DNA of 64,000 nt from Norana najaformis (lineage: Eukaryota > Annelida > Clitellata > Crassiclitellata > Hormogastridae): positions 26,798,953-26,862,952 of the forward strand of contig OZ029916.1 of the NCBI GenBank assembly GCA_964023275.1, written 5' to 3'. Under the pieces are notes generated by a model. The model was not told the DNA's origin, searched no databases, and saw only the letters and a program-made list of their open reading frames with translations. Below, in pieces: positions 2,613 to 52,823 of the stretch (positions within the stretch are counted from its first letter, which is position 1; each line of letters starts with the position of its first letter). The position numbers were made by a program, and so were the translations under genes.

Positions 2613-4580
2613 TAATCATATGACATTATTCCTACTGGACTTCCTTAGTTTCCAGGGCTTCATATGTCCTACATATGACATTGCTGTTGAGGTTGGCCTA
2701 ACAGTCTGAGGAACGGAGTTATTAGAGGCATCTGGCAAAGGCAGACTCGTTTAGTCAAAGATTTTGCCAAATTTGATTTTGGTCTGAAGTTCATTAGCAC
2801 ATCTTAACAGATCTGTGCTAAGAAATATATACGAAACCCGGATTTGCCTACCTGAAAATGGATTTTCTACTCCTTCTACCACAGGATTTCAAAGCCAACC
2901 TGTTTTTCTGTTGATGATTATAGTTTAACCACAGCTTTTAAATAGGGTTTGAAGATTCTGGGCTTCTTTAGTTTCCAGGGCCACATGTGCCACTGCCCTT
3001 ACTTCCCTTGGATAGTGCCAACTCATAAGCTCCTGCATAAATATCCAGCTGCATAGCATTACATTTACCAGGCCAGGTCAACTGAGCTCTTTGGCCTTTC
3101 TTCGCCTCTATTCCTTAAATGTTTGAAAACCATTCTGTTTGACCGTGGTTTTGTGTTGTCACATGTAGGTCACGAGTGTTTCTGTTGAGTCTCTCGTGAA
3201 GAGGCATTATAGAAAAAATCTGTGATTCCAGTTAGAATTACAATTCAAGTTGTGGAAAGCCTGCCCTAACAGCTTGCAAACTTTTTATTCCGTTTTATGC
3301 ACCCAGCTTAACTCTGTTCCAAGGCGTCAGAAATCGAGGTAATAAACGTAGTTGCTGTCACCCAATTACCAGGACTTTAAAAAAACGGGAAGCGGTCATG
3401 CACTTAGACTAAAGATGACTCGCTGTGTGGTCGAGGGCCAGAGATTCAGAGATTCACATATGTATTGGCCACTTTTGAGACCTTGGATGGTCAACTTTTG
3501 AGAACACTGCCATTAGGAGAGGTTTTTAATTGTTGTTTAAAGTTGCCGCTTTGAAGCACATCGTCCAGGCTCGGCGTTTCTTTATCTAGAATAGCCCGAC
3601 CACTGGTGCATATAAGTGTCTTTTTCAAATTGGACAAGCCATGAGTCTGTATGCAGGCCTGCTGCCTGCTTGGCCAATCGTCTCGTTTTATGGCTTGTCT
3701 CTGCCTGTCCTCGGCCTACTACTACTTATATACATGCGGCCTACACACCTGGTCTTCTTAATCGCGTGTGCCAGCGCGCTCTGCGAAGAACGGCAAAATC
3801 TGCAATAATTATTTGCTGAGGTGAGTACTTACTGACTGTTTTGGACCATTAGGGCTATGGTTAAGTGGGCTGGAATAGGTGAAAGGGCCTCATGGGTTTG
3901 TGAGTTCCTGAACTGATGCCCATTTAATTGGAATAAATTCCAAGTCCTATCTGTTTAGAGGGTTCATATTGTAATAGAATGAAACTGTTAGAAATCATAA
4001 ATCAAGAGCAAATCAGATGCAAAATTGTATTTTTCTACACTTTGGTGTACACTACGAGTGCGATCAGTGGGCATCAAAACCTTGGAAGTGGTTCTTGAGT
4101 AGGGTGCTTTAACCGTTGATGTTAGGGCAAGAAGGAAAGAATTTGTGGAAATATTGCTAATATGGCCTTGGGTGATGGGCGTATAATTGTTGTGTCGTTG
4201 TTGTTGTTGATGTTATAACACATGGGAAGGCAGAGAAAACTAGGCAGAAACCAATAACTGAGACAGCTCTTAAAATTATGCAGACTGGATAAATATATTG
4301 CAGAAAGTAAGAAATTATAAAATCAGAAGAGAATGCAACAAAAAATGCACTCTGCAGATTACAGGTTCCAGTCTGAAATTTTGGCCAGGGTGTGTAAAAC
4401 ATTTGACCGGGAGGTTGCAGTAGATACAAATCTACTGGGAAATCCCACCCTGCCTGTCTGCCTGTTTCTTCCTGTCTCATAGGGGTGTAAGTTTATTTCG
4501 TTTTTAATCACTAAAAGCTCACTTTCAGTTGACTAATGGATGTAACATTGCAGCCTATCTATCGGTAGTTTGTCCTAGCT
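2613..4580. other. Intergenic DNA without recognised features
   Basis: No coding region, RNA gene or clear repeat could be supported. Short open frames here show no family resemblance. A GTTGTTGTTGTTGATG run occurs near 4190-4210. Confidence 0.5.
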
Positions 4581-4584
4581 TTAT

Positions 4585-4680
4585 ATAATGTATGTATGTA
4601 TGAAAGTATGTAGTTATGTAAGTCACATATTATGTATGTATGTATGTATGTATGTATGTATGTATGTATGTATGCATGCA
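4585..4680. repeat. (TATG)n microsatellite
   Basis: Imperfect TATG repeats start near 4585. They become a near-perfect array between about 4630 and 4672, ending in ATGCATGCAG and a short (GT)n run. Confidence 0.9.
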
Positions 4681-4854
4681 GATATGTGTGTGTGTTTAAC
4701 ATTTGTACAACACCTTTCAAGAACCTTGCAAAATAATGTATGGCATGGTATGGCGAGGTAGTTTAAGGTAATGAGTCATTTGTAATGTGCCTTTATCAAT
4801 GACAATAATTCTGAGAGGCATGGTTCTGGGATTGAAGGATCATTGAGCTGAAGT

Positions 4855-4995
4855 GTAAACACAGAGGACAAGACCAATCCAACACCTTGACCATGTTATG
4901 CACATTTATACTTTATCATCCATGTACTTACTGGGTACACAGTAGGCAGGATCGGAACTGAATTTGTAAGGCAAAAGAGGGAAACTCCTTCCAGA
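4855..4995. repeat. Dispersed repeat, copy A
   Basis: This segment is repeated at 5855-5985 in the same orientation. Shared landmarks in order are GGACAAGA, CCAACACCTT, GTGCATTTATACTTTAT or a close variant, CCATGTAC.TACTGG, and AATTTGTAAG. Identity by eye is about three quarters. No coding content is recognised. Confidence 0.6.
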
Positions 4996-5854
4996 CTGGC
5001 TCATAATGGAACAGCGATACTAACGAGGCCACAACCCGAGGCGGAGACCAGGACTCTCTAGACCAGAACCCAAGACCAGAGGGAGACTCACGTTACTGGA
5101 GGTAGATTCAGGAACTACATTGACCTTATCAACGTTAGACTTAATTGAGATGTTCTATCTATGAAATCTACAACCAAGTTAGGTATTGTGAGCGACATTA
5201 TTTAGATAGTTTCAGGAATCAGTAGGCAGGCAGGCAGGCCGTCGCACTCTGGAGCTTTATTCTGCTATTGTGCAGAGCACATCCAAATTCAATTTTCAAG
5301 TATGTTTAAAATAAAAATTATCATGAAGATAATGAAAATGAGTTTGTATAATGGTGTTACTTTTATCTGTACTAGTACATAGCAATCAGTACAGATGGTG
5401 TCATGTCATCAGGTGGGATCTGTGTATGCACTATATGTGCAATTTTGAACTGTTTTGGCTTCCACTGACCGTGAAGTTTGTTGTAGATGTACAGCGTTTT
5501 GTGCATGGATCTTCAGTGCATGTGGATTTTCATTTATAAGGCTTTCATATTTTGCCTATGAATATATGTTGCTACAGGCCATATGTCGGAGGGATGCTGT
5601 TGTGTGTGTTTTAGTCCACTTTGATTAACCTTACTGTGAATATCCGCAGTTAAACCATGTGTCCAATATAGGTTTGTGTGAGAATGATGTTTGCCTAGTA
5701 GGTGTTATGGACTGAGAGGCCTATTTGTTTGTTACCCCAACAGATGTCCTGGTTCTTAAGACCTATTAACAATAGGCAACAGTTGCTGATTGGTTGCAAC
5801 AGACTATGCATATTATGCTCAAAAATTGGAAAGCCAACAGGAGGCAGCAGTTAA
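4996..5854. other. Intergenic DNA without recognised features
   Basis: Nothing supportable was seen. The stretch contains a short AGGCAGGCAGGC run near 5222. Confidence 0.4.
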
Positions 5855-5985
5855 TGCATAGGACAAGAGCACTCCAACACCTTCACTTATTTATGTGCAT
5901 TTATACTTTATGCATCCATGTACCTACTGGATACTTAGTATGTACAATCAAAAATTAATTTGTAAGAGAAGGAGAGGAACTCGTT
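5855..5985. repeat. Dispersed repeat, copy B
   Basis: Second copy of the 4855-4995 repeat, same orientation, about 1 kb away. Copies this diverged indicate an old family rather than a recent tandem duplication. Confidence 0.6.
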
Positions 5986-6059
5986 AAACAAACACTGGTT
6001 AAGCTGTGGATCATTTATCAGCTTCAGTATAAAACTTCTTGTAGATGGTTGATATCTGT

Positions 6060-6247
6060 AGGTTTGTTTGAAATTTTGTTTTGAAAGTTCAATATACGAA
6101 CCTGTCAATGCAGTCCATCTGTTAAAAACTACTATGGTGAAAATTTCAGACAAATTGAACAGTATTTAGGGGTTGAACAGTATTTAGTGGGTTGTGCAAG
6201 GATTTCTGGCTATACCATATTATACAGCTTTATGGCAAACAAACATG
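6060..6247 (+). repeat. Unclassified retroposon-like repeat, + copy
   Basis: The segment ends in TCTGGCTATACCATATTATA followed by CAGCTTTATGGCAAACAAAC. The same terminal 39 bp occurs inverted at 6734-6772 with one mismatch. A longer match covering about 180 bp, including GGTGAAAATTTCAG and AAATTGAACA, is found inverted at 28120-28265. The common 3' boundary in all three copies suggests a family with a fixed 3' end. No protein is recognised. Confidence 0.6.
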
Positions 6248-6727
6248 AATCAGTACACAAATACAAGTATGTATTTTAGTATGGCTTAAACAATAAACAT
6301 TAGCTTACTGTAATAAAGTAGTAACCAGCAAGGCAGCAAATTGCAAGTTCAGTCGCGAATTTGTCTAGAGCTTGCAGGTGTTCAGCGCAGTGCCACTTCA
6401 GATTTTTATTCATGTGTGCAGTTCAGATTGTTATTTTATGTTTGGAGTTCAGATTGTTATTTTATGTTTGGCTAACAAAGTCTTCTTATTAGAATCAGGA
6501 AATTTGTGACAGTGCTTTTGGATGATTTGCAGCAAATATTATTTTTGCTGTTCATCATTTGTAAGAATTGAATTGTAATTCTGAATAAGCCTTATTCTTT
6601 CTCGACTTTTATTCACAATCTTGAGCGTCTTCACGATTTGCAGTAAAGCAAGGTACCGCTAGTCCTCATTTTATTCCAGCTTACTGGAGGAATGAATTTC
6701 ATAGTTTCAGAATCTGAAATATTTTAC

Positions 6728-39639: not shown

Positions 39640-39895
39640 TCGCTCAAAACTGAAAACATTCCTCTTTCACAGATCCTATCCTGATTACCTTTCTTCCTCT
39701 TATCTCTCTTTCCGCTCCAATCCCAAACATCACCCACCGTAGCTACCACGCTATCTCTGCCTGACTTGATCTTGACCCGGAACCGAACCCTTTTTGCCTA
39801 TCGATTTTGTTTTGACTGAGCGCTTGTGAATAAGCTGGTCTCCATGACGTGGCTTTCGTTGGGCGCTGTAGAAATTTCGTTATTACGAAAACGAC
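39640..39895 (+). mobile_element. LINE 3' end: C-terminal codons plus conserved tail
   Basis: The best example of the window's LINE tail family. A plus-strand frame reads ISALAFRSKLKTFLFHRSYP, the LINE C-terminal F+S.LKT.LF block. It is followed by a proline-rich decay, GATCTTGACCCGGAACCGAA, TGCCTATCGATTTTGTTTTG, GAATAAGCTGGTCTCCATGA, and the terminus GGGCGCTGTAGAAATTTCGT. This layout matches CR1/L2 elements, whose 3' ends resemble GGCGCTATATAAAT. Confidence 0.75.
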
Positions 39896-39904
39896 ATCGG
39901 TCAT

Positions 39905-40000
39905 CACAAATTGATCGATTTTGGTTTGACTGAGCGGCCCGACAATAAGTTTGTTTCCTGTGACTTAGTTTTCTTTGAGCGAGGTCTGCGGCGGAAATCG
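39905..40000 (+). mobile_element. Second, diverged LINE tail in tandem
   Basis: ATCGATTTTGGTTTGACTGA followed by GCGGCCCGACAATAAGTT and TTTCTTTGAGCGAGGTCTGC repeats the tail of 39770-39890 with many changes, immediately downstream in the same orientation. Confidence 0.5.
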
Positions 40001-40189
40001 CGTGGGGGACATAAGGGGACTATCCCCTCAAAGTTTTTACTGGGGATTATCCCCATAGTTAAACTTATAATAGGGGACAGCAGAAGGGGACAGTGCTAAA
40101 CCAAGCGCTGTCCCCATGCTTTCTTTAACTTGTATGCGTTGTCCCAGTTTCTTTGCCTTGTTAACAACTATTTTTGAGTTTAAATAATT

Positions 40190-41700
40190 TATGTCTGTTG
40201 GAATAAGTAAAGCATTGATGAAGACCTTCTACCACATGGAGAATTTGTGGGACTATACGATCCGCCTTCTACAACAGGTGCAATTCTGGCCGAGTGCATT
40301 TTTGACGTGCTGCTACGCTTACAGCTACCAGTAGCCTGTCACTTCTTCGTGGACAGTCAGTCATATGAAGGAGCAGGTGACATATGTGGTCAATATAATC
40401 AATGGCTGCCAAGCAATCATAGCTGAGCGACAACCGCTTGCTCTCTATGTTCGCTGTGGCGCTCACTGCGTTAATCTTGTGTCACAGCAAACTCTGGAGT
40501 TTGTCCATTTGGTTAGAGATTCACTGCATAATCTTCAGGAGCTTGGTTGTTTGTTTCCACAATCTATCAAATGTCGTACCACATTTACTAACATCATTCA
40601 GTAGGAGAAATCTCTTCAACAGGTACAGCAAATTAAACCATTGCAGCCTGAAGTCTGTATTATTTGCCAGTGGTCTCACTGGTTCGGGTCGGGAGCGCTT
40701 CTGATGAGTCTGTTCTTGAAGTGGTGCTTTATAAATGTCAGATTACAATTACAATTATACAGTGAGGGTTAAAGGGGTTCTTTCACTTCTGACTCGGTAG
40801 GCCTACTGTTCAGTTCTGGAATGTCTGGATGTGGCAGCTAGCGCATCTGGTTTATATGTAAGTTTGCGGAAAGGAAATGTGCTGTTTGGATTAAAGATGG
40901 CTCTGAAGATTCTTGCACCATTTGAAAGACTCAACAATTCATTGCAGTCAACGTATCAGACCGTATCTGGAATGCTCGCAGATGTCGACAATATCATTGC
41001 AGAACTGATTTCTTTTCTTAACGATGATGTAATTTGATGGTCTGATGCAAGATTACAGTGACATTATAAAGAAGCTTTACTTGGAATCCACTGCTGTACC
41101 GCGACAACGTAAACTTCCAAAGAACAGCATGCTACCAATAGGCCTGCAGAAACATTTGTAGCTTAGACATGTACAGAACATTACCCACCTATTTCATGTT
41201 AATTGATACTGTTCCCTTGAATCTGCGGCACCGTTTTGGAGATAGTGCGTTTGTGCCTACAAGGCACTTGAAAACGTTTTATTTTCTGGCTTTATTGATA
41301 AGCATGTACTGTCCCCATATAAAGAGTTGTGCATAAGTGAAAACTATCAACGAAGCAGCCTTAGTAATGCGGGAAATAGTCCCTGAAGTTTGAGAATTTG
41401 TTGAGATAGGGAAGTTTGTCCGATTACTACTGGTATGTCCTGCGTGTTCTGCAGAAACCGAAAGAAGTTTTAGTGCTCTCAAAAGGCTCAAGACATGTCA
41501 TGGCGAAGAAGCTCTATAACAGAAACTAGATTGAAATCAGTGGTTGTCTGCAACACCCATGAATACCTGATTGATTCGGCTGACAGACAGTTGATTTGCA
41601 CATTTATTTCCAGGTCCACCATAAGATCTGCCAAACTACAAAATGAATGATTGCATATCTCCCCATTTATGAAGTCTATGTTCACTGGCACTACCCCTAT
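40190..41700 (+). pseudogene. Decayed hAT transposase / DUF4371-like gene
   Basis: Several plus-strand frames, broken by shifts and stops, resemble the hAT-like family with ZMYM1 or 52-kDa PKR-inhibitor-repressor relatives. NGCQAIIAERQPLALYVRCG followed by AHCVNLVSQQ (40395-40495) matches NG.QA.I...NP.A.YVHC.AH.LNL, part of the RNase H-like transposase core. At 40830-41037 comes ASASGLYVSLRKGNVLFGLK. At about 41430-41510, VCPACSAETERSFSALKRLK corresponds to the C-terminal hAT dimerisation motif (.P.S.A..ERSFS.LKR+K). The catalytic gene is dead. Terminal repeats were not identified with confidence; the GGGGAC-rich DNA at 40005-40125 and GTCCCCC near 41950 may be relics of them. Confidence 0.7.
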
Positions 41701-42154
41701 CCACCAACTGTGAATAAGAAGTGTTCAAAAATTTAACCACGTTGCAACAACATGCATAGAAAATTGTAAAAAAAACACAGTAAACTTCTTGTTTGTTGTC
41801 CCGAACTAAAAAGTCGTTAGCAGTTTCGGCTTATTTGCAGTTTCGGCTTATTTAGACTTTAAATACTTAGAATCTAGATATTTACTCCGTCATATGAACT
41901 CAGTAATCTGCAAGCAATTGATGAATTATGAATATCTGTGTAGTCTGTCTGTCCCCCTATTTATGTTTACTCTCCGCTTTTGACCCCCATAACGAACAAA
42001 AACATGAAAAAAATTTCGGCGCTATCTCGCGGTCCTCCTAGAGTTATCTACAGATTTTCGCCTCTGCCATTGCAGTTCTCTCTATCTTCTCTCTCTGAAC
42101 TTGCATGAACAGTGGCGTATAATTAATTCATTTCTGCCGTGTGGGCCCCGCGCA

Positions 42155-42320
42155 CTGACACCAGAGGGGCCCCTGTGCCACGACACACGGACACAATGGT
42201 CAATCCGCCACTGACACCAGAGGGCCCCTGTGCCACGACACACGGACACAATGGTCAATCCGCCACTGACACCAGAGGGCCCCTGTGCCACGACACACGG
42301 ACACAATGGTCAATCCGCCA
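42155..42320. repeat. 55-bp tandem repeat, three copies
   Basis: Three consecutive units beginning CTGACACCAGAGGGCCCCTG and ending CAATGGTCAATCCGCCA. The first copy has one extra G and the rest are identical by eye. The identical copies imply a recent expansion. There are no spacers, so this is not a CRISPR-like layout. Confidence 0.95.
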
Positions 42321-42479
42321 CTGACTTCAACTTATCAAAGGACAAAATCTGGCAGTACAATATCGCGGCAGTTTTGTACAAGGACTGAGAAATATAAAAA
42401 GCAACATTTAAAAAATGCGGACCTAAACTTCTCCGCCCGGTCCGGCCCGCCACGAACTCGGTCCCGCCGAGCCCGATGC

Positions 42480-42620
42480 TCATCTCTACTCGAAACAGAA
42501 CTCTTGCTGCCTATCGATTTTGTTTTGAAATCTCGAGCTTGCGATTACGGGTCACCCTTAGGCTTGATAATGTTTATTTAACGACGCCACACAGAACAAT
42601 ATGTCTTAGGCCTATATTAA
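42480..42620 (+). mobile_element. LINE tail fragment and short SINE-like motif
   Basis: TGCTGCCTATCGATTTTGTT repeats the LINE tail. At about 42569, TGTTTATTTAACGACGCCAC followed by ATATGTCTTAG resembles, from memory, a conserved core seen in molluscan SINEs, with a large internal deletion. The SINE assignment is tentative. Confidence 0.4.
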
Positions 42621-43545
42621 ATTACGGGGCCCAAGACCGGTAAGCTGACGGTCCGCTACCCAACCAGAACACCAAGTGGGGAGGCTGGTGGTGGGTTTTC
42701 CCAATGCTCGCGCAGCGGGGGTTGGTTTACTCCCCTCCCTGTCTTGGTTACCTGTTACTGGGCAAGTGTCTTTTGGGAAAGTTAATCTAAGGATGTTCTT
42801 TTGTTAGACTATTCTTTAAATGTCCCTTGGTGTTCTTATTAGCCAGCAATGTTCGGCAGTGTTCCTGATCTTTCGTTTCTTCTTTATCTTCTACTTTGTC
42901 TTCTTTCTTCATTCTGTCGTGTTCGGTCGCGTTTTCTTACTTATATGGCATGAGGGCCGCCTGTGCTAACCAGGGTGACCTCCCTTGTTTGGTGGCACAA
43001 GGGCCGCCTTGGGAAAGCGTGCGTTTAGATTTTTTCTTTCGGATACCTCTTCCTACCTGTAGATGATAAGCCTATATAAGCAGCTCGGTTGACTGAGGAC
43101 AGTGCGAAGATCGAAGGTCCATTTTTAAATGCGCACTCCCGTAAGAGGTGATCCTGAAGGCCTTCTTGGGCAGGGCATCCCAAAAGGAAGTGGCGTACGG
43201 TTTCTTGGGTGTCGCACTCGTCTCAGTTTCTGGTCTCGTGGCGACTCCACAGCATCATCTGTGCGTTTAAGCAGCAGTGGCCTAACGGCGGAGTCTGGTG
43301 ATGACAATTTCGTTTCTTCGGTTGGGGTCGCTCTATTTTCTGGTCAGGCTCACGTTCGGTTCAATGACCCGATATTCATAAACCTGGGCCCGATGTGGAC
43401 TAGTCTCATTGCCACTTCCGAAGGAAGTGGTCTTTCTAGATAGTTATTCTAGATTGGTCGGGAGATCGACGCTGGCGCGATGTAGCACTTTTCTGCACAG
43501 AGCGTCTGAAGTCTCGTTCCCTGTGATGAGGTCACCCTTTCCATA
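42621..43545. other. GC-richer segment with TATA box, possible solo LTR
   Basis: No coding region is recognised. CTATATAAGCAGCTCGGTTG at 43072-43091 is a strong TATA-type core. Short AGGGCCGCC repeats occur near 42953 and 42999. A perfect 8-bp stem with a 3-base loop (CCACTTCC GAA GGAAGTGG) sits at 43412-43430. TG...CA ends and a target duplication were not found, so the LTR reading is only a possibility. Confidence 0.35.
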
Positions 43546-43712
43546 CCCCTTTCTATCTCTTCTTTTTCTTCTTTCTTCTTCTTCGCCTCCGCCTCCTCCT
43601 CCTCCTCCTCCGCCCCTCCTTCTTCTTCTTGCTTTTTCTTCTCTTACGTCCCCTCCTTCTTCGTTTTCTCCTCCTCCTTTTTCTCCTCCTCCTGCTCTTC
43701 AATAAAATCCTG
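43546..43712. repeat. Polypyrimidine (CTT/CTC)n tract
   Basis: Nearly uninterrupted C/T sequence on the plus strand, mixing TCT, TTC and CTC trinucleotides with a CCTCCTCC core. It is followed near 43724 by a short C run and an A run. Mirror-symmetric stretches could adopt H-DNA. Open frames across it encode only low-complexity peptides. Confidence 0.95.
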
Positions 43713-44390
43713 CCCAGCGGTCCCCCCCCCAAAAAAAAACACTGCTTCCACCCTAAACTCGCACAACACGTCAGTGCGCGAGTCTCCGCCAATCAGACAC
43801 GACGTCGGCTAATGACCGACGTGTGCGCTCTGCGTGACGCCGTGGTGGTCTAGATCTTCGGCTGCGTGGTGCACTCGTAGTGGCTGGGCTTCAACTGGGA
43901 CGAAGGCCTTAGACGCCGTTGTCGTCGAGGTTATAATTAGATGCAGCAAAAACCAGGGATTTTCCAACTGCGTCTCGTTGACACAGAAAGCCTTTCACAG
44001 ATATCGGACAAGAACGTCTGTCAGCGTCCCTCAGTAGGTCTTTCTGAAGTCAGCGAATGCAATGCAATCGCTGTTTCAGTTACACTCAACAGTATTTTAT
44101 TAATAACCGTCTAATCGGTTACCAATGAACAACTGTAGGCCTATTAGCATAATCGGGTGTATGTTGTGTGATGACTTGCTGTAAATACTCGGTTACTTAA
44201 TCGGAGTTTGATTAGATATGGAAATAAAGGCGCTAGGTAATGCTCAGAACACGAACAATTCACTGCAAAATATGAGTGCTGGCGAATTAGTCAACTTCTG
44301 AAGCGCTGTTTAACATTAATACGGTAGCCTACCCTCGTAGGCCCTACAGCTCGGTCTTTTACACCTGAGGCGTGGATAATTTTACCTGAA
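43713..44390. other. Intergenic DNA, no recognised features
   Basis: Nothing could be supported beyond short anonymous open frames. Confidence 0.4.
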
Positions 44391-44394
44391 AAAC

Positions 44395-44650
44395 GGACAA
44401 TCGTAAACTCGCGATTTCTACAGCGCCCAGAGAAATCTAAGTGGGGGAACCAGCTTATTCAAAGGCTCTCAGTTAAAACAATATTGATAGGCAAGAAGGG
44501 TTCGGTTCCAGGTCGAGATCCAAGGCAGGCAGGCAGTCGGCTGCGGTGGGTGGTGCTTGTAACTGCAGAAGAGGAGTGCTTTCAGTTTTGAGTGGAAGAC
44601 TTGCACAGAGGTTGCAAGGGGTGAAGTGATGGCGAGTTCGTATGATGGAT
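44395..44650 (-). mobile_element. LINE 3'-end fragment, minus strand
   Basis: On the minus strand the peptide LATSVQVFHSKLKALLFCSY is the LINE C-terminal F..KLK..LF block. It is followed by CTCGACCTGGAACCGAACCC, TTGCCTATCAATATTGTTTT, GAATAAGCTGGTTCCCCCAC and the terminus GGGCGCTGTAGAAATCGCGA. It is the same family as 39640-39895, in the opposite orientation. Confidence 0.75.
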
Positions 44651-45226
44651 ATGCGTAACGATAAGCGGACAAAGCGTGAAGGAATTTCTTTAATATTTTA
44701 TTCTTATTTATATAGGCCCTACACATCATTCGACGATTTATTATTTCGCTTATTTATTACACAGTTCCGCACGAAACACGATGGCAACATGCTGCATAAT
44801 ATTATGCAGGCTGAAGGATCACGCAAGATGTGCGTGCTATTTGGTACTAGCCTAATCACTACTATGTATATATATATAGACCCTACATATTATTCTACAT
44901 GTTGTTGCCTTTGACTCACTCGGTAGACTAGGCTACTAACCTCGTAAACTATTGCCTAGCTATTCTAGTCTGTTTTCCGAGACAGAAGTCTAATTATATA
45001 GGCTACACCATTTCTGTTTACTTGCAAGCTAGACGTCGGCTAACGGAATTTTTCGAAAGGTTACAGCGCTTACTACAGTAAGGATATATCGATGCTTTGA
45101 CCTCCCTTATTAACGAGCATGTATTAATATATTTATATATTTCGTATTTTGCATATTATATATTTATATGATATTGCTATATTATATTAATATTATATAA
45201 TGATAAAAGTGAGCAGAGTAGAACTG
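44651..45226. other. AT-rich intergenic DNA
   Basis: No gene. A TATATAGGCCCTACACATCATTC-like segment near 44708 recurs as TATATAGACCCTACATATTATTC near 44873. 45115-45205 is almost pure A/T. Confidence 0.5.
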
Positions 45227-45303
45227 TGCATCTATGCTATTATTCAAAGAATAGGCTGCTGCAGAGCCATCTCTGGGCTGCTGCTGAATCAGATTACAAT
45301 CGT
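45227..45303. repeat. 77-bp direct flank duplication, left copy
   Basis: Begins TGCATCTATGCTATTATTCA and ends CAGATTACAATCGT. It recurs directly after the 3' LTR at 50051-50127 with two substitutions (C/T and A/T). The next bases, GGAG before the LTR and ACATGGAG after the right copy, suggest the duplication continued a few bases with a 4-bp indel. Confidence 0.95.
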
Positions 45304-45307
45304 GGAG

Positions 45308-45508
45308 TGTAGTGAAAAGTTGGAGAAACAATGAGGATTTTAGGGTTTTGCATATTGTAGATTGTATTACGTCCGACAATTTAGCTATTGTGTTTATGTA
45401 ATTAATTTGCACGGAACACTGGGGAACAGTTGGATGTAATTAACGAGAGGCGGATAGGACGCCCGTAGTTGACAGGTAGAAGTAAACGAGAGAGAGGGAG
45501 AGTGAGAG

Positions 45509-45549
<41 letters not shown>

Positions 45550-45734
45550 CGGAGCAGAGGGATGCTGATCGGATGGCGAAAGGGAGAATTTGGGTGATTG
45601 ACAGATGAAGGGGAAAGTTAAGGAAGGGTGCGAAGCGAAGAAGGCATTCGCTAAACAACGGTCGAAAGAGGCGTTAGGTTCCGGAGAACAGAAGAAAGAT
45701 AATAAACCTGTATCTCTTAAACGGACCTCGCTAG
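45308..45734 (+). mobile_element. 5' LTR of a Ty3/gypsy-type retrotransposon
   Basis: It begins TGTAGTGAAAAGTTGGAGAA and ends GGACCTCGCTAG (427 bp). It is identical to the 3' LTR (49618-50050) except that the internal GA microsatellite is 6 bp shorter. AATAAA at 45701-45706 is the likely polyadenylation signal. The 5' end has the usual TG, but the 3' end is not CA. Confidence 0.95.
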
Positions 45735-46534
45735 ACTAAATAGGCCGATGCGAATCATAGACTCTGAGTTTGCTGAATTTGTTGTAAATACGGTGTAAAT
45801 ACGTGTAATATACGTGCGAAAGAAAGAATCGGTGTTGTCTCTGTACGGTCGGACTGATCCATTCACGAACCCGCGTGCTGTTAAAGGCCTAAAGTCCCCC
45901 GAAGATAAAGCCATATCAATAGCACCGCTCGCCACCATATCCTGAAAGGAGACTTGTGTTCACCAGCGATCCATCGCATCGCAGGACCCACAAGCAAAAA
46001 CATTTCTTTCAGTACATTGTGACAGTGAAGGACTTGATTCGTGTGTCAACGGATACCTACAACGTGACGCCGACATCTAAAGGATTCGACCGATGTGCTG
46101 AGACGAACTAAGCCGAGAAGAACAACCAAGGGAACAACCGTTGCAGCAAAACAACTACCATTTCAGCAACCAAAGGAGGAGTCTGGAGAAGCCAGCAACA
46201 AGTGACGCAGTGTAACGGAGGTCGGAGCTCAACAAGAAATCAATTTCCAGCGGATGCGGCTGTTTCCCCAAAACTACACATTCGACAAATCTGGAACGAA
46301 ATCTGGTGAGCGCATTCCGAGTCGTTAATAACTGATCATTCGTCATTTTGTTCTGTGTTTCAGAGAAGCACTTGACTTGTGATTTTGAGAGTGTGAATGC
46401 AGAAGCTGTAAACCTATTACTATTACTGTTACGTGATATAATTGCATTATCTTATTGTGTCTGTTGGTATACGTGAAACTTATAGAGATTTGTCATTTAT
46501 CGTACTGTATTAACTGGAAGAATTTTATATTGAA

Positions 46535-49246
46535 ATGTTTGACAAAATGAAAAAGAAGGATCTGGAAGAAGAGTGCAGACGGAGAAATATCAACCCAGAA
46601 GGTTTAGATAAACGTGAAATGATACGATTGCTGAAGGGAAATGGAGATGTAGAGGGAGACGGAGATAGAGTGGAAGAAGTTGAGACAGGCGAAGCTAGTA
46701 TCAGTGAAGGCCAGATGAGGCTGAAACTGATTCAAGCTGAGAAAGAGAAAGTGCAGGCTGAGGAGCGGCGTACGCAGGCTGAAAGAGAGAGGATGGAATT
46801 GGAACTCGTTTTACTGCGTGAGAAAGCACAGTTGGGTCTGTTGCAATCTAATAACGCAAGAGTTGATGTAGATGCTGCTGCTGTGTCTGCTTATGCAAAA
46901 CTACCCAACATGCATGAATCCGAAGATCCGGTTTCCTATTTCCATTCTTTCGAGAAGGTTGCGTTTTTGCATGGTATTGATGAGGCTCGATGGGCTAGGC
47001 TTCTTCCATCTTTGTTAAATTCCTCCCTTAGAATGCATTACAACAGATTGCCTATGGAAATCTGTGCCGATTACAGGCAAACGAAATCGTCATTGCTGAG
47101 CGCATGTAGGATGAACGCGAAGTTCTATCTGGATAAGTTCAGATCTATTCACAGAACAGGCAAACAGTCATACCCACAGTTTTTAGATCAGTTGCGTGAT
47201 GTGTTTCAATATTATTTAGAGTCAAAGGATATTACTAATTTTGATGCTCTTAAAGATGATGTAATTTTGGAAAGACTGAAAGAGTCTTTGCCAAGTGATA
47301 CTAGATATTTTGTGGAGGCGAGAAAGCCCCGAACTGCTGCTGAAGTGGCTGATTTTGCCAATCTCCACTACGAATGCACGCTAGAAGGAAGGAAGGTAAA
47401 CCACCTCGAGCAAAAGCAGGGTTATAAGCCAAGGCCTTTTAATGCAAACCATAATGGTAATCAGTGGGAAAGTAAACAAGCCCATTCCACACACCACGAT
47501 ACAGCGGAACAAAGGGCCCAGGACAAAAACCTACAGCAAAATGCAAGACCAATGCATTTTGGGAATGTCCATTATCGAACGGACCAAAGAAATCATTTCT
47601 ACAATAGCAAGTTTAACAAAAACAATTCTCAAGGACAGGGAAATGCCCAAGTAAAATTCGTTAAGCAAAAGTCCAACTTAGACAAAATTGTGGATTACCA
47701 AAAACGATTCGTTGTACCTTTGTTTGTAAATAATATTTCTGTTGAGGCCCTGAGGGATACAGGAGCCCAGGTTACGTTGATAAATTCTGAGCTTGTAAAG
47801 GATAGTTCATCTGCCAGGAAGGGGAAGCCAGTAACCGTGCAGTGTGCTTTTGGGCTTGTGAAATATATTTCAACACAAGAAATTGAAATTTCCTCGCCAC
47901 ATTTTGGTACAGACAGAAGGATAACGATCAAAGCGGGTGTGGTCCCTGGACTTCAAACAGACCTGCTAATAGGCCATGATCTATTTGTAAATAATCCAGA
48001 CTTGGTCGACCCGGTGGGTGCATGTAATTGGGATCCCGTTAGCTTACCCCAAGCATGTATAGCTACCCGCACCCGTAATTACGACGTTAAGGATCAAAGG
48101 GAAACCGTAAACCCGAGGGAGCCACCTAGCGCTGTCACGTCAAACGACGAAGCGACCGATGAGCCCAGTGACGTAGGGGTAATTAGTGACGATCACGAAG
48201 TGGAAACATATGGCACTGGAAGTGATAGCTCTGAAGCAGAAGATAAGCGGATCTCAGGTGAGGAAGATAAGGTAATTAACTTAACGACGCCTGCGCGATC
48301 CGAAACCGCACCGCAAAGCGTCATTAGTGAGAGCGAAAGCCCGGAGGGCAATTCAAAGGAAACGATTAATACCCTAATTAACGAAGAAGTCCCTGATATC
48401 AATACAGCACAGCGAAGCGTCTGTAGTGGGAGCGAGAGCCAAAATGACAGTTCAAAAGAGCCGATTAAATCCGTAATTAACGAAGTCACCGAATTCACTG
48501 CAGCACCAAAACAAGATACCACGTTATCAGAATATTGTAAACGAGAGCCCTCTGCAGATAACAGGCATTTGATAGAAGTTGGTCTGCTGTTTCGGCAAAG
48601 GAGCTCGGATCACAGTCAAGACGATAATGGGAGGGATAGCAAGCAGATTGTTCTGCCCGTGAAAAATAGATCACAGACAATCAAATTAACCCTTCATATT
48701 CTATGGACTGGCCAACGCGATACTGAATCAACAAAGGGTAGATTGTGCCAAGTATTTTCCTGGCCTGCTAGGACAAGTGGTATCCAGTCGTATTTAAGTA
48801 CATGCGCCATTAGTCCGAAAACGGCCATAGTAAAGAAGGCTGATATAGCGCCTCTTGACGTAAGGGTGTTACTCTTGCGGCATTCTGCAGGGAACGAGTT
48901 ACCGGCGAAATGGGATGGACCTCAGGTAGTGAGCAGGAAATTAGACCCAGAAGGAGTAGATAGACCAACTGAATATGATAGAAGAAAACTGATAGCTAGA
49001 GAAGCCTATACGACTACCATCGAATGGGAATTGCTATGCGTGATGTGGTACCTGTATGTCACCTGGTTCTTAATCATTTCCAGTAGTATACACATGGCAC
49101 AATGCTACAGGTTTATCCAGATCATGGCAAAAGAAAACCAGCGGATCACAATTTGGGCTCTGGCAATTCAAAGGTACAATCTAGATATTCATTATGACCC
49201 GGGGAAACATAATTCGCTGGCAGATGGACTATCTATAGCTATATGA
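46535..49246 (+). CDS. Gag-protease polyprotein with integrase and RNase H remnants
   Basis: One uninterrupted 903-codon frame of the LTR element. Residues 5-35 resemble a SAP-type helix-turn-helix (MKKKDLEEECRRRNI). 60-105 form a charged coiled coil. 115-285 resemble a Ty3/gypsy gag capsid (DPVSYFHSFEKVA; FLDQLRDVFQYYL). No CCHC zinc knuckle is seen. 390-485 is an aspartic protease with active-site DTG at 408-410 and LLIGHDL near 477-483. 500-670 is an acidic, Ser/Glu-rich linker with an internal duplication. 700-766 resembles an integrase zinc-binding domain (LPVKNRSQTIKLTLHILWTG), but the second His and second Cys are lost. 775-800 resembles an integrase C-terminus (VRVLLLRHSAGNELPAKWDG). 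825-903 resembles the RNase H end (YNLDIHYDPGKHNSLADGLS) without its TDH catalytic motif. The order integrase before RNase H suggests the Gmr1-like pol arrangement. Confidence 0.88.
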   Translation: MFDKMKKKDLEEECRRRNINPEGLDKREMIRLLKGNGDVEGDGDRVEEVETGEASISEGQMRLKLIQAEKEKVQAEERRTQAERERMELELVLLREKAQLGLLQSNNARVDVDAAAVSAYAKLPNMHESEDPVSYFHSFEKVAFLHGIDEARWARLLPSLLNSSLRMHYNRLPMEICADYRQTKSSLLSACRMNAKFYLDKFRSIHRTGKQSYPQFLDQLRDVFQYYLESKDITNFDALKDDVILERLKESLPSDTRYFVEARKPRTAAEVADFANLHYECTLEGRKVNHLEQKQGYKPRPFNANHNGNQWESKQAHSTHHDTAEQRAQDKNLQQNARPMHFGNVHYRTDQRNHFYNSKFNKNNSQGQGNAQVKFVKQKSNLDKIVDYQKRFVVPLFVNNISVEALRDTGAQVTLINSELVKDSSSARKGKPVTVQCAFGLVKYISTQEIEISSPHFGTDRRITIKAGVVPGLQTDLLIGHDLFVNNPDLVDPVGACNWDPVSLPQACIATRTRNYDVKDQRETVNPREPPSAVTSNDEATDEPSDVGVISDDHEVETYGTGSDSSEAEDKRISGEEDKVINLTTPARSETAPQSVISESESPEGNSKETINTLINEEVPDINTAQRSVCSGSESQNDSSKEPIKSVINEVTEFTAAPKQDTTLSEYCKREPSADNRHLIEVGLLFRQRSSDHSQDDNGRDSKQIVLPVKNRSQTIKLTLHILWTGQRDTESTKGRLCQVFSWPARTSGIQSYLSTCAISPKTAIVKKADIAPLDVRVLLLRHSAGNELPAKWDGPQVVSRKLDPEGVDRPTEYDRRKLIAREAYTTTIEWELLCVMWYLYVTWFLIISSSIHMAQCYRFIQIMAKENQRITIWALAIQRYNLDIHYDPGKHNSLADGLSIAI

Positions 49247-49617
49247 CGAATTAAATATCATTACGCTGTAATATGTTTTAGTTCATTCTGATATGGTGTC
49301 TTAGAAACTTACGTAATTAGCTGAGTAGTTAAATCTTAAAGTGTTACACGATTATATTATTATGTATTTGAACGATATTACTCGTTTTTGGTTTTGTTTG
49401 TGCTTTCTGTTATAGGTACGTAGACTTGTAACTAAATCGCCTGGCGAGTTCGCTGACGTACGGCTTTGAAAGACATTAAACCTAACGCCGTTCGATGCTC
49501 GTCTGTGCTTCTGTAAACAAATCAGCGTTAAATTGAACTGTTTGCCCACCTAAAGAAAGCCAACTGTGTACTTTCCGAAGCTACTGCGGGGTGCCGTCAG
49601 CTTCAGAAGTGGGGAGA

Positions 49618-49818
49618 TGTAGTGAAAAGTTGGAGAAACAATGAGGATTTTAGGGTTTTGCATATTGTAGATTGTATTACGTCCGACAATTTAGCTATTG
49701 TGTTTATGTAATTAATTTGCACGGAACACTGGGGAACAGTTGGATGTAATTAACGAGAGGCGGATAGGACGCCCGTAGTTGACAGGTAGAAGTAAACGAG
49801 AGAGAGGGAGAGTGAGAG

Positions 49819-49865
<47 letters not shown>

Positions 49866-50050
49866 CGGAGCAGAGGGATGCTGATCGGATGGCGAAAGGG
49901 AGAATTTGGGTGATTGACAGATGAAGGGGAAAGTTAAGGAAGGGTGCGAAGCGAAGAAGGCATTCGCTAAACAACGGTCGAAAGAGGCGTTAGGTTCCGG
50001 AGAACAGAAGAAAGATAATAAACCTGTATCTCTTAAACGGACCTCGCTAG
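49618..50050 (+). mobile_element. 3' LTR
   Basis: 433 bp, matching the 5' LTR base for base outside the GA repeat, which is 6 bp longer here. AATAAA lies at 50017-50022. It is preceded by the purine tract that would prime plus-strand synthesis. Confidence 0.95.
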
Positions 50051-50127
50051 TGCATCTATGCTATTATTCAAAGAATAGGTTGCTGCTGAGCCATCTCTGG
50101 GCTGCTGCTGAATCAGATTACAATCGT
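50051..50127. repeat. 77-bp direct flank duplication, right copy
   Basis: Starts immediately after the 3' LTR and matches 45227-45303 at 75 of 77 positions by eye. Confidence 0.95.
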
Positions 50128-50249: not shown

Positions 50250-51345
50250 CAACACGATAACACATTTTACATCCCCCTTCCTGCCTTTGTGACCCCGCCA
50301 CTGTTTTCACGATTCTTGACAAACACGCTCCTATTAGTACCAAGCCCTGCTCCAACTCTAACAATCATTGGTACAATTCCTATCTCCGGGCTTTCAAATC
50401 TTCCGTCGACGCTTTGAGTGCACTTACAAACGCACTCGTTTTCCGCAACTTTGCCATTAAATCGCGCACAAATAAATACCAACACCTAGCTACGGCTAAA
50501 AGGAGACTTTACTCCCCACTAGTTCGTTTCCGATACTCTAGCCCTCGTCTACTCTGAAAAACCATAAGTTTACTTTTTTATCGGAACTCCTCCAGCCCAC
50601 TGCCAAATTCTCTTCCGTCTTCCTCAGCAGCAAACTCGTTATTTCTTTTCGGACAAAATTAGTGCTCTCTGTCTTTCTCTTCAATCAGTCCTTTCCAAAA
50701 AGCGACAGAACCACCAAAAATTCACCTGCTGTTGCTCCCTCCCACTTTTGATCGTCCACCCTCCCCATCCCGATCCTTATGATCTGTCTTCCAACCCACA
50801 TCAGAGACTGAAATATCAGACTACATAAGTTTTCTTATGTTAAAATCTCCTCCAAACAGAAAGTGCGAATTTGACCTTATACGTACCTCGTCAGTGAGAA
50901 ACTGTGCATCTGTCTTTGTTCCAATCATTACCTAAATAACTAAGCTCCCCTTGTCTACCAATAATTTCCATCTCCTTTTCAGACTCTCTCTCGTGGGTAA
51001 CCATGTATTTGATAAAGAACTACAGATTTGATTTTAACCTGTCTTTCACCTCCATAATAACTGAACGAACTATCCAATCTCGGATTAATGACTACGTGAC
51101 TTATAACTCGTTCCTTAACCTACACCAGTCTGGTTTTAGGCCTACTAAACGGTACTCAACTGAAACCCATAGGCACTCCCTCTACAATACACGCTTGTTT
51201 TTGCAGTATCTCTTCAATAGGTGTCTCGCCTCTGCCTCCTTGATATTTCAGCAGCCTTCGATACGATTGATCGCCGAGTCCCACGATATAGCTTTATTTG
51301 GGCGCTGTAGAAGTCTCGATTTACCATTAAGATTAGCGGAAATTT
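50250..51345 (+). pseudogene. Internally deleted LINE (CR1/L2-like)
   Basis: A decayed plus-strand reading runs from the region between endonuclease and reverse transcriptase (TILDKHAPISTKPCSNSNNH, then WYNSYLRAFKSS) through the fingers (VGNHV...ITERTIQSRINDY, NSFLNLHQSGFRPTKRYSTE) to the first catalytic block LDISAAFDTIDRRVP near 51237-51280. There it joins abruptly to the tail GGGCGCTGTAGAAGTCTCGA, which belongs to the 3' terminus of the same LINE family. The rest of the reverse transcriptase is missing. Several stops and frameshifts are present. Confidence 0.8.
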
Positions 51346-52823
51346 CCTACTTCTATTCAAAGCCAGAAGTTCAAGGCGTCTAGAAGAGATGTGTCATCAA
51401 TCAATAAAAGCATAGCCATAGAGGTTGTAAAATATTTATGTGAATAGTTCTTGACTCAGCTCGGCTTAACAAGCAGTATTTAGAAGCAGCCTAATGTTGA
51501 AACTTGTTTCACAGATCGGAGAACTAAAGACATTCGGATCGATTTCGTGCACGTGTAAGTTGGATCTACCCTTAACATACATTTCTAAAAAAAGGACAGG
51601 TGCTTTCAACTACGTCATCACTCCGTTAAAAAGGTTGTGTGTGATAAACAGAGCCAGAAACTGTGCCACAACCTCTGCAGCTGTTTGCAAGTGGAGCGGG
51701 TAATCGCATCAGGTGAAGTAAGCAAAAATAACATCTTGTGTATGTAATATTCTACAGCAGCTTGTAGTCAGAAGGAGTGTTGTAAAACGTAATTATTTGC
51801 CCACTCACGGCTCAGGCTTCCAACATCAACCAAAGTCCGTTCCGACATACCCTATGAATTCCTCAAAGCTATTAGTTTGAGCTATAGCGCGCTAAAAATA
51901 GGCGGCACATCACGTGACCTGTACAGACTGCCCCATTCAAAGATGCAGTCTGGGTAGGCCTTTCGTATTAAATCTACCGTCTGCAACCAAAATCCAAGTA
52001 AATTTACCGACTTACGAAAGGTGAGCGATGGAATTTCAGATTTCTGCACTGATTTCGACTTAGAAACTTTTAAGGATGAAGGTATCGTGAGATTCGACTC
52101 GGACTTAGTGTAAGTGATGGGCCAATCACTGAACGGCCGGCCGAGCACACCCACTCGTTCCCGGACCTTTCGAAGCCTTCTAGAAAATCTTGTTTTTAAT
52201 TCAGACTGTCTCTTTTCGTGTCTTTTCAGCAATGTCTTATTTATAAATGTAACAGCAAGTTTTCGATGTTAGACCATAATCGGTTTTTGTTAGCTTAAAC
52301 TTGAATGATTGATTTATTCGAGTAAGTCTTTATCACATGATGCAAACGCTATGCAATAGGCTAATTATAAACATCGTTACGTGTTATATATCAAAGTTAA
52401 GGGTTAGAATTGTCTCTTTATTTTTTAAATAGGTTTCGTAGTTCACCAGAATTAATAAATTGTTTTAATGGCAATATTTTGAAGTACGAGAATGCATAGG
52501 AACAGAAAATTACTACCTTGGCGCAGTGCCAAGTCGTGGATTCGTAATTACAGAATATTTTGAACACCAAAAGGCTGAGCTGAAAGACCAGATTTTTTCA
52601 CAGTCCTCCAGCACTGGAGCTTTAAAGTGGGAATGTTTCTGGAAGTGCTGATTTAGTCATTCCAATCAGTGAGTGCTTACTGTGGAATTTTGCTTATGCT
52701 GCTGCATTCCTTGCCATATGTGGGAGAACATGCATAAAATGGAGTTTATAGTTGGATCCAGCCAGCTGCTGCCTGTGCAATCTGGGTATTATTTATTGGT
52801 GAATGTAACGTCTTGTTTTGCAG
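51346..52823. other. Intergenic DNA 5' of MELK, possible promoter
   Basis: A CpG-bearing patch (51880-52200) contains CACGTG at 51911-51916 and a CCAAT box in GGGCCAATCACTG near 52118, 600-900 bp upstream of the first recognised MELK exon. A promoter role is inferred from position only. Minus-strand open sequence in this patch has no ATG. A 5' untranslated exon start at 52824, after the acceptor TCTTGTTTTGCAG, is plausible. Confidence 0.35.

What the first reader, a model, noticed from the sequence alone, without database searches (positions are those of the whole stretch)
46535..49246. Gag-protease frame kept open across deleted integrase and reverse transcriptase
The 903-codon frame joins gag and protease to remnants of both integrase ends and the RNase H end, with the integrase core and reverse transcriptase core absent. 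Two large deletions left the frame open. The remnants have lost metal-binding and catalytic residues, so they decayed for some time without acquiring a stop. Yet the copy's LTRs are identical. This fits an established non-autonomous lineage that supplies its own Gag and protease and borrows pol from a partner, possibly with the pol-derived tail put to a new use.
Basis: partly seen in the sequence, partly recalled or inferred. Interest (0 to 1): 0.75.

Follow-up and report, generated by a model that had tools for sequence, protein, structure and literature searches.

The report
Pol-less jumping gene sharing partner's Gag
An animal genome carries a shortened retrotransposon family that lost the enzymes it needs to copy itself, has kept its long reading frame open for a long time, and appears to be carried by a full-length partner with which it keeps swapping its front half.

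Summary
The open frame (46535-49246, 903 aa) is real. It belongs to a lineage: 25 contiguous copies of the pol-derived tail, window included, lie at 85% identity or more in the 608-Mb genome. All 20 further copies fetched cross both deletion points. A full-length Gmr1-like Ty3/Gypsy partner (gag-PR-IN-RT-RH in one frame) exists; its integrase core occurs in 17 complete copies, one a hybrid without RT. Against partner copy L030, 712 nt of integrase core (13 nt remain, net 233 codons) and 1281 nt of RT (427 codons, 5-nt overlap) are missing. Gag-protease, leader and 3' region are shared with the partner (up to 100%), while the tail is one old clade (71.6% in the integrase end). The gag-PR tree mixes the classes, p-AU 2e-5. 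The tail frame is kept open: shared variants include 1 stop against 11.6 expected. Its amino acids are only weakly constrained. So this is a long-lived pol-less allele, inferred to be carried by its partner. Correction: the LTR is 709 bp, and this copy's 3' LTR stops at base 427. A new use of the tail is not shown.

The parts
45308..46016 (+). 5' LTR, complete, 709 bp, TGTAGT...AGTACA
   Evidence: Boundaries from other copies, where positions 1-709 recur at both ends, mostly next to 5-bp duplications
46017..46534 (+). leader; no TGG (usual start of a tRNA primer site, recalled) near the LTR end
   Evidence: priming site not identified
46535..47689 (+). gag, residues 1-385: weak SAP-like N-terminus, SCAN-like capsid end (47126-47359), no Cys and so no zinc knuckle in residues 285-390
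   Evidence: Pfam SAP E 0.0012 (fragment), SCAN 4.5e-8 (fragment); Cys count
47690..48004 (+). protease, DTGA intact at residue 408
   Evidence: gag-asp_proteas E 1.7e-8 as fragment; motif position
48005..48576 (+). acidic low-complexity spacer with an in-frame 33-codon tandem repeat (48305-48403 and 48404-48502); 99-nt length differences between copies
48581..48856 (+). integrase zinc-domain remnant (residues 683-774), metal ligands lost
   Evidence: 51/92 identical to L030 integrase piece, E 2e-30; Pfam Integrase_H2C2 E 0.0027-0.013
48853..48865 (+). junction 1: 13 nt in place of 712 nt of the partner (integrase core), net 233 codons
   Evidence: L030 4271-4982 missing; crossed by the window and all 20 further copies fetched
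48866..48943 (+). integrase C-terminal remnant (residues 778-803)
   Evidence: 81% DNA identity to L030 4983-5060
48939..48943 (+). junction 2: 5-nt overlap where 1281 nt (427 codons; RT and start of RNase H) are missing
   Evidence: L030 5061-6341 missing
48939..49246 (+). RNase H C-terminal remnant and stop codon; residues about 839-858 look out of frame relative to the partner
   Evidence: 61/117 identical to L030 RNase H piece, E 9e-34; gapped DNA alignment
49247..49617 (+). 3' non-coding region ending in a purine-rich tract
   Evidence: 98.4% identical to L029/L030; tract AGAAGTGGGGAGA
49618..50050 (+). 3' LTR, truncated: only positions 1-427 of 709
45226..45307 (+). left flank; its first 78 nt recur right after the truncated 3' LTR (50050-50127, 2 mismatches)
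50050..50127 (+). right-flank copy of the 78-nt stretch

Best explanation
This is one copy of a long-lived non-autonomous 'pol-less allele' of a Gmr1-like Ty3/Gypsy retrotransposon. Shown: the full-length element encodes Gag-PR-IN-RT-RH in a single frame. Relative to it the short form lacks the integrase core and the RT, both in frame, one junction with a 5-nt overlap. The tail is a single clade whose synonymous divergence from the partner is about six times that of the gag-PR it is attached to. Gag-PR, leader and 3' ends are exchanged between short and full-length copies. Inferred: short RNAs are packaged together with full-length RNAs, reverse transcribed and integrated by the partner's enzymes, and template switching in shared particles swaps the flanks while the tail persists. 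Shown statistically: variants seen in more than one copy rarely put a stop, and never a frameshift, into the tail, although its residues drift. Inferred: the short element's own polyprotein is translated to its end, and early stops are selected against (loss of the own Gag-PR product in cis, or RNA decay), rather than the old enzyme folds being kept. The short form probably persists because its shorter RNA still brings its own Gag-PR into the pool.
For: Copies and junctions. Partner with Integrase_H2C2 2.6e-17, rve 3e-9, RVT_1 1.9e-20, RNase H 3.7e-36. Deletions. Mobility: of 21 short copies, 15 have both LTR ends complete; 12 of these have an exact 5-bp target duplication, 1 matches 4 of 5 and 2 have none; their LTR differences run from 0/689 to 21/671 (two of the 12, L011 and L014, share one flank and are not independent). 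Mosaic: gag-PR identity short-full is 95.5% (max 100) against 95.1% short-short, while the IN end is 71.6% against 94.2%. Trees: gag-PR 10 label changes against 11.3 shuffled, as low in 135 of 500 shuffles, and one short clade rejected p-AU 2.3e-5; IN end one clade, 100/100. dS short-full 0.70 in the IN end (16 pairs) and 0.117 in gag-PR (294 pairs). Frame: shared variants in the tail 1 stop against 11.6 expected (P 1e-4); remnants alone 0 against 6.8 (P 0.001); shared indels in the ORF 10 of 10 multiples of three (5 in the tail) against 0 of 8 in non-coding parts. 12 of 21 copies have no internal stop in the frame read from the gag start.
Against: No RNA, protein or particle data. Amino-acid constraint on the remnants is weak (N/S relative to expectation 0.68, p 0.04; gag 0.28, PR 0.14). 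Gag recombines with the full-length class, so purifying selection on gag does not show that short copies' own Gag is used. Gene conversion between chromosomal copies could also mix flanks. 9 of 21 copies carry stops or frameshifts. Shared variants are not fully independent. The tail could be old because it came from a diverged relative rather than by deletion from this partner's own ancestor.
Confidence: 0.8

Rival explanations
1. The tail frame is kept open only to protect the RNA: a stop inside the tail would expose it to nonsense-mediated decay or lengthen the 3' untranslated part, and the peptide itself does nothing.
For: Stops and frameshifts are avoided while residues drift: remnants 0.68 of the neutral N/S ratio.
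Against: Some amino-acid constraint remains (tail N/S 0.61, p 0.001; remnants p 0.04), and parts such as AKWDGP, SPKT and SIHMAQ are the same in all 12 open copies.
Confidence: 0.4
2. The pol-derived tail has a new function, for example as a particle component that contacts the partner's integrase or RT.
For: Open frame, weak but present amino-acid constraint, conserved stretches in the 12 open copies, and a novel segment in the RNase H remnant that looks out of frame.
Against: Constraint is far below that on gag and PR, and zinc-domain variants shared among full-length copies are more often synonymous (10 S:5 N against 13 S:24 N in short copies). The single-sequence structure model was unusable (pLDDT 36).
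Confidence: 0.2
3. Short copies are pure parasites: they use the partner's proteins for everything, and their own frame is irrelevant.
For: They lack integrase core and RT, and gag is shared by recombination.
Against: The decayed tail is a feature of the short class, yet it avoids stops and frameshifts in shared variants. A wholly irrelevant frame would not.
Confidence: 0.15
4. A one-off deletion in a single copy that has stayed open by chance.
For: None beyond the window itself.
Against: 25 contiguous tail copies including the window; same junctions in 20 of 20 fetched.
Confidence: 0.01

Closest known systems
Athila pol-less families of Arabidopsis (PMC2410132, passages read)
   Same: Non-autonomous LTR elements that keep coding ORFs, inferred there to use the enzymes of other families, exchanging segments by recombination with pol-bearing relatives; cooperation proposed.
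   Different: Plant elements with Gag or Gag plus Env; here an animal Gmr1-like element with Gag-PR fused to decayed integrase and RNase H ends, and free exchange within one family.
IAP 1-delta-1 elements of mouse (PMC6466679, passages read)
   Same: A deletion joins gag and pol remnants in one frame; [quoted passage not shown] the fusion protein acts in cis.
   Different: [quoted passage not shown] here the gag-PR part matches the full-length partner from end to end, there are two deletions, and the tail is old and decayed.
TR-GAG elements of plants (PMC8704663, passages read)
   Same: LTR elements with a single Gag frame and a related, potentially autonomous element; transposition seen in Arabidopsis.
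   Different: Gag only; no protease or pol-derived tail.
Gmr1-like Ty3/Gypsy elements (PMC3587641, PMC2774666, PMC4131045, passages read)
   Same: Integrase before RT; SCAN-type Gag (PMC3424704, passages read); the passages name a fish, frogs and crustaceans as hosts.
   Different: No pol-less allele is mentioned in the passages I saw.

Membership tests
Gmr1-like Ty3/Gypsy | integrase encoded upstream of RT-RNase H | tested here: met
   Partner L030: H2C2 and rve in 3996-5063, RVT_1 in 5064-5900, RNase H in 5901-6641; same order of remnants in the window
Gmr1-like Ty3/Gypsy | SCAN-related Gag capsid | tested here: met
   Pfam SCAN E 2.6e-7 whole, 4.5e-8 fragment; link of SCAN to Gmr1-like Gag from PMC3424704
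Gmr1-like Ty3/Gypsy | RT groups with Gmr1 elements in a tree | not testable with these tools
   no reference RT sequences held
LTR retrotransposon integrated by an integrase | TG...CA LTRs and short target duplications | tested here: met
   exact 5-bp duplications in 12 of 15 short copies with complete ends; 2 of 3 full-length copies (L031 was misparsed and left out); the window copy itself cannot show one, its 3' LTR is cut
Non-autonomous LTR element with a partner | several copies sharing the lesion, plus a full-length relative | tested here: met
Non-autonomous LTR element with a partner | mobilisation by the partner's proteins observed | not testable with these tools
   inferred from target duplications, young LTRs and recombination only
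TR-GAG | single frame encoding Gag alone | tested here: not met
   frame also holds protease and pol-derived tail
Domesticated host gene from gag | host locus without LTRs, not a mobile multicopy family (criterion recalled) | tested here: not met
   multicopy, LTR-bounded, young insertions

The most novel reading that the evidence does not exclude
A balanced two-allele retrotransposon. The full-length form has Gag and Pol in one frame with no stop or shift between them, so it should make them one to one. The pol-less form supplies extra Gag-PR and so sets the Gag:Pol ratio in shared particles. The two forms recombine freely at both ends and have been kept together far longer than any single gag lineage, with the tail retained as a translated particle component.
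Probability: 0.25. Interest if true: 0.75.

Novelty: new variant of a known kind. Interest (0 to 1): 0.56.

Why it matters
It is a clean natural case of a defective element that has lasted beside its presumed helper in an animal genome. The short class has one old tail against a constantly reshuffled front half, so selection acting on the defective element itself can be separated from selection on its helper. That makes two old questions directly testable: whether pol-less elements are mere parasites or contribute Gag, and how single-frame LTR elements obtain more Gag than Pol.

Tried and rejected
Searches of viral contigs, genome contigs and plasmids found no relative. A structure prediction of the tail was of no use (pLDDT 36.1), so no fold search was run. 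PDB search: the third hit of the integrase-end fragment was the Ty3 Gag-Pol chain 7q5b (E 1.5, after two unrelated chains), suggestive only and superseded by L030; the RNase H fragment and the whole protein gave only unrelated hits or weak hits to a viral protease. I at first took the LTR to be 426 bp and the 78-nt flank repeat for a long target duplication; other copies showed that the window's 3' LTR is truncated. Rejected: single-copy accident; domesticated host gene (multicopy, LTRs). Pfam scans of ten open frames elsewhere in the window gave nothing at E 0.01. Rfam and tRNA scans gave nothing.

Rows dropped: of 24 other contiguous tail copies at 85% or more, 20 were fetched for the counts; C13:18.49, C1:2.53, C2:18.18 and C2:11.83 were not in the counts (the last was looked at). 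Ten copies of the full-length class were fetched only as gag-to-integrase pieces (one of them, L041, turned out to belong to the hybrid locus of L044), so leader, integrase-C, RNase H and 3' comparisons use 4 of 14 full-class copies. Two short copies (L022, L024) drop out of the leader comparison. The tool calls its genome counts lower bounds.

Full report
CHECK. The frame 46535-49246 is open, 903 codons. Residues 198-275 match SCAN (E 2.6e-7), 397-484 the Gag-type aspartic protease (E 2.6e-7), 800-881 RNase H (E 2.6e-4); SAP is weak. The integrase zinc domain reaches only E 0.0027-0.013 in fragments. By composition the 413-codon tail should hold about 25 stops; it has none, while the other two + frames have 27 and 44.

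THE GENOME. The 903-aa protein gives 76 matches there (50 of 879 candidates scored). Eight other copies match residues 1-902 at 90-95% identity, seven of them without a stop, with further partial ones. A second set matches residues 1-627 at 92-99% and is mostly the full-length class, with frames up to 1551 codons and only 54-57% identity at the integrase end (two of this set, L027 and L028, proved to be short copies). The tail DNA finds 25 contiguous copies at 85% or more including the window, two at 76% and fragments (40 of 68 candidates scored). The integrase core of the partner finds 17 complete and 1 partial copies at 91% or more and weaker relatives (32 of 32 candidates scored); one of the 17 is a hybrid without RT, and only four of the class were fetched from end to end.

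THE PARTNER. Searched in pieces, L030 shows Integrase_H2C2 (2.6e-17), rve (3e-9), RVT_1 (1.9e-20) and RNase H (3.7e-36), integrase first. With the SCAN-type capsid this fits the Gmr1-like group (integrase before RT: PMC3587641 and PMC2774666; SCAN from Gmr1-like Gag: PMC3424704; passages read). No RT tree could be made. In L030 the integrase, RT and RNase H pieces have no stop and lie in the frame of gag-PR, within an open frame of 1544 codons.

THE DELETIONS. The window tail aligns to L030 in three pieces: 48412-48852 with 3827-4270 (72%), 48866-48943 with 4983-5060 (81%), and from 48939 with 6337 onwards (72%). So 712 nt are replaced by 13 (net 233 codons), and 1281 nt (427 codons) are lost with a 5-nt overlap. 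All 20 other fetched copies run through both junctions, as does the older L043. Against L030 the remnants have lost both zinc histidines and the second zinc cysteine, and the TDH stretch of RNase H (the roles of these residues are recalled). Part of the RNase H remnant (about residues 839-858) looks out of frame relative to the partner, with gaps in the DNA alignment there, yet is nearly the same in the 12 open copies.

LTRs. In other copies the LTR is 709 bp and ends in CA. Of 21 short copies, 15 have both LTR ends complete; 12 of these have exact 5-bp target duplications, L023 matches 4 of 5, and L018 and L028 have none. LTR differences range from 0/689 (L009) to 21/671 (L015); the full-length L029 has 0/689 and L030 1/689, both with 5-bp duplications, while L032 has none. 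Both classes were thus active recently and seem to integrate in the same way.

MOSAIC. Short-full identity equals short-short identity in leader (95.1 and 94.3%), gag-PR (95.5 and 95.1), first part of spacer (96.7 and 96.3) and 3' non-coding (97.5 and 97.1), but falls to 71.6 against 94.2 in the integrase end, 80.6 against 93.2 in integrase-C and 84.8 against 94.5 in the RNase H end (21 short and 14 full for gag-PR, spacer and integrase end, 4 full elsewhere). L009 (short) and L030 (full) are identical over gag-PR. In the gag-PR tree of 35 rows the two classes are mixed (10 changes; 11.3 in shuffles) and one short clade is rejected (p-AU 2.3e-5). In the integrase-end tree short copies are one side of a branch at 100/100. 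dS between classes averages 0.70 in the integrase end (16 pairs) and 0.117 in gag-PR (294 pairs). The tail is therefore an old allele riding on a shared, reshuffled frame. One locus (C8:31.80) even joins a full-type integrase core (98.9%) to a short-type integrase-C and RNase H end without RT.

SELECTION. Pooled pairwise dN/dS among 21 copies: gag 0.24, PR 0.18, spacer 0.51, remnants 0.55. Counting each variant once and taking those seen in more than one copy: N/S relative to expectation is 0.28 in gag, 0.14 in PR, 0.54 in spacer, 0.68 in remnants (p 0.04). Stops: 1 in the tail against 11.6 expected (P 1e-4), 0 in the remnants against 6.8 (P 0.001). Shared indels inside the frame: 10 of 10 multiples of three (5 gag, 4 spacer, 1 remnants); in leader and 3' non-coding 0 of 8. 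Single-copy variants in the remnants do include stops (3, against 6.8 expected) and frameshifts (4 of 5 indels). For comparison, zinc-domain variants shared among full-length copies are 10 S to 5 N, among short copies 13 S to 24 N. The frame is thus kept in lineages that replicate, the residues much less so. Because gag recombines between classes, only the tail reports on selection in the short class itself.

MECHANISM. Best reading: short RNA is carried in partner particles and copied and inserted by partner enzymes, with template switching exchanging the ends; its own polyprotein is translated. None of this was observed directly. Whether the tail peptide acts or only must not be cut short is open. 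I give 0.8 to the pol-less allele reading.

KNOWN KIND. Athila (PMC2410132), IAP 1-delta-1 (PMC6466679) and TR-GAG (PMC8704663) are the nearest cases (passages read). In the listings of nine paper searches I saw no pol-less Gmr1-like lineage; the listings were capped and most subscription papers are not held, so this is weak evidence.

Noticed in passing
window 45226-45307 and 50050-50127: A 78-nt stretch of the left flank recurs right after the truncated 3' LTR with 2 mismatches. It may come from the empty allele (haplotype switch or rearrangement); the two copies differ more than the LTRs do (2/78 against 0/426, Fisher p 0.024).
   Followed up: partly
L028 (C1:53936800-53943300), flanks of the element: A perfect 294-bp direct duplication abuts both complete LTR ends in place of the usual 5-bp target duplication; L018 has a direct repeat of about 500 bp near its ends, and L021 one of about 40 bp.
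   Followed up: partly
L044 (C8:31804300-31807200): A hybrid copy: full-length-type integrase core joined to short-type integrase-C and RNase H end, RT missing; a recombinant or an intermediate.
   Followed up: partly
L043 and its neighbour (C2:39797322-39803842): Two short-type tails about 5.8 kb apart, 76% identical to the window tail; the fetched one, L043, has the same junctions.
   Followed up: partly
L013, L020, L024: Three further short copies have 3' LTRs whose match stops in the same part of the LTR (after bases 458, 510 and 439).
   Followed up: no
window 46017-46060: No TGG follows the LTR end, so the usual tRNA primer site (recalled) is not recognisable although copies are young.
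   Followed up: no
window 39757-44532: Inverted repeats of about 119 bp (83%) bound a 4.8-kb stretch whose broken translation looks (by eye, recalled) like a hAT transposase end.
   Followed up: no
window about 50300-51500: Right flank has broken frames that look (by eye, recalled) like a non-LTR retrotransposon; bases 50298-50435 are a dispersed repeat, 39 further matches listed (40 of 401 candidates scored).
   Followed up: partly
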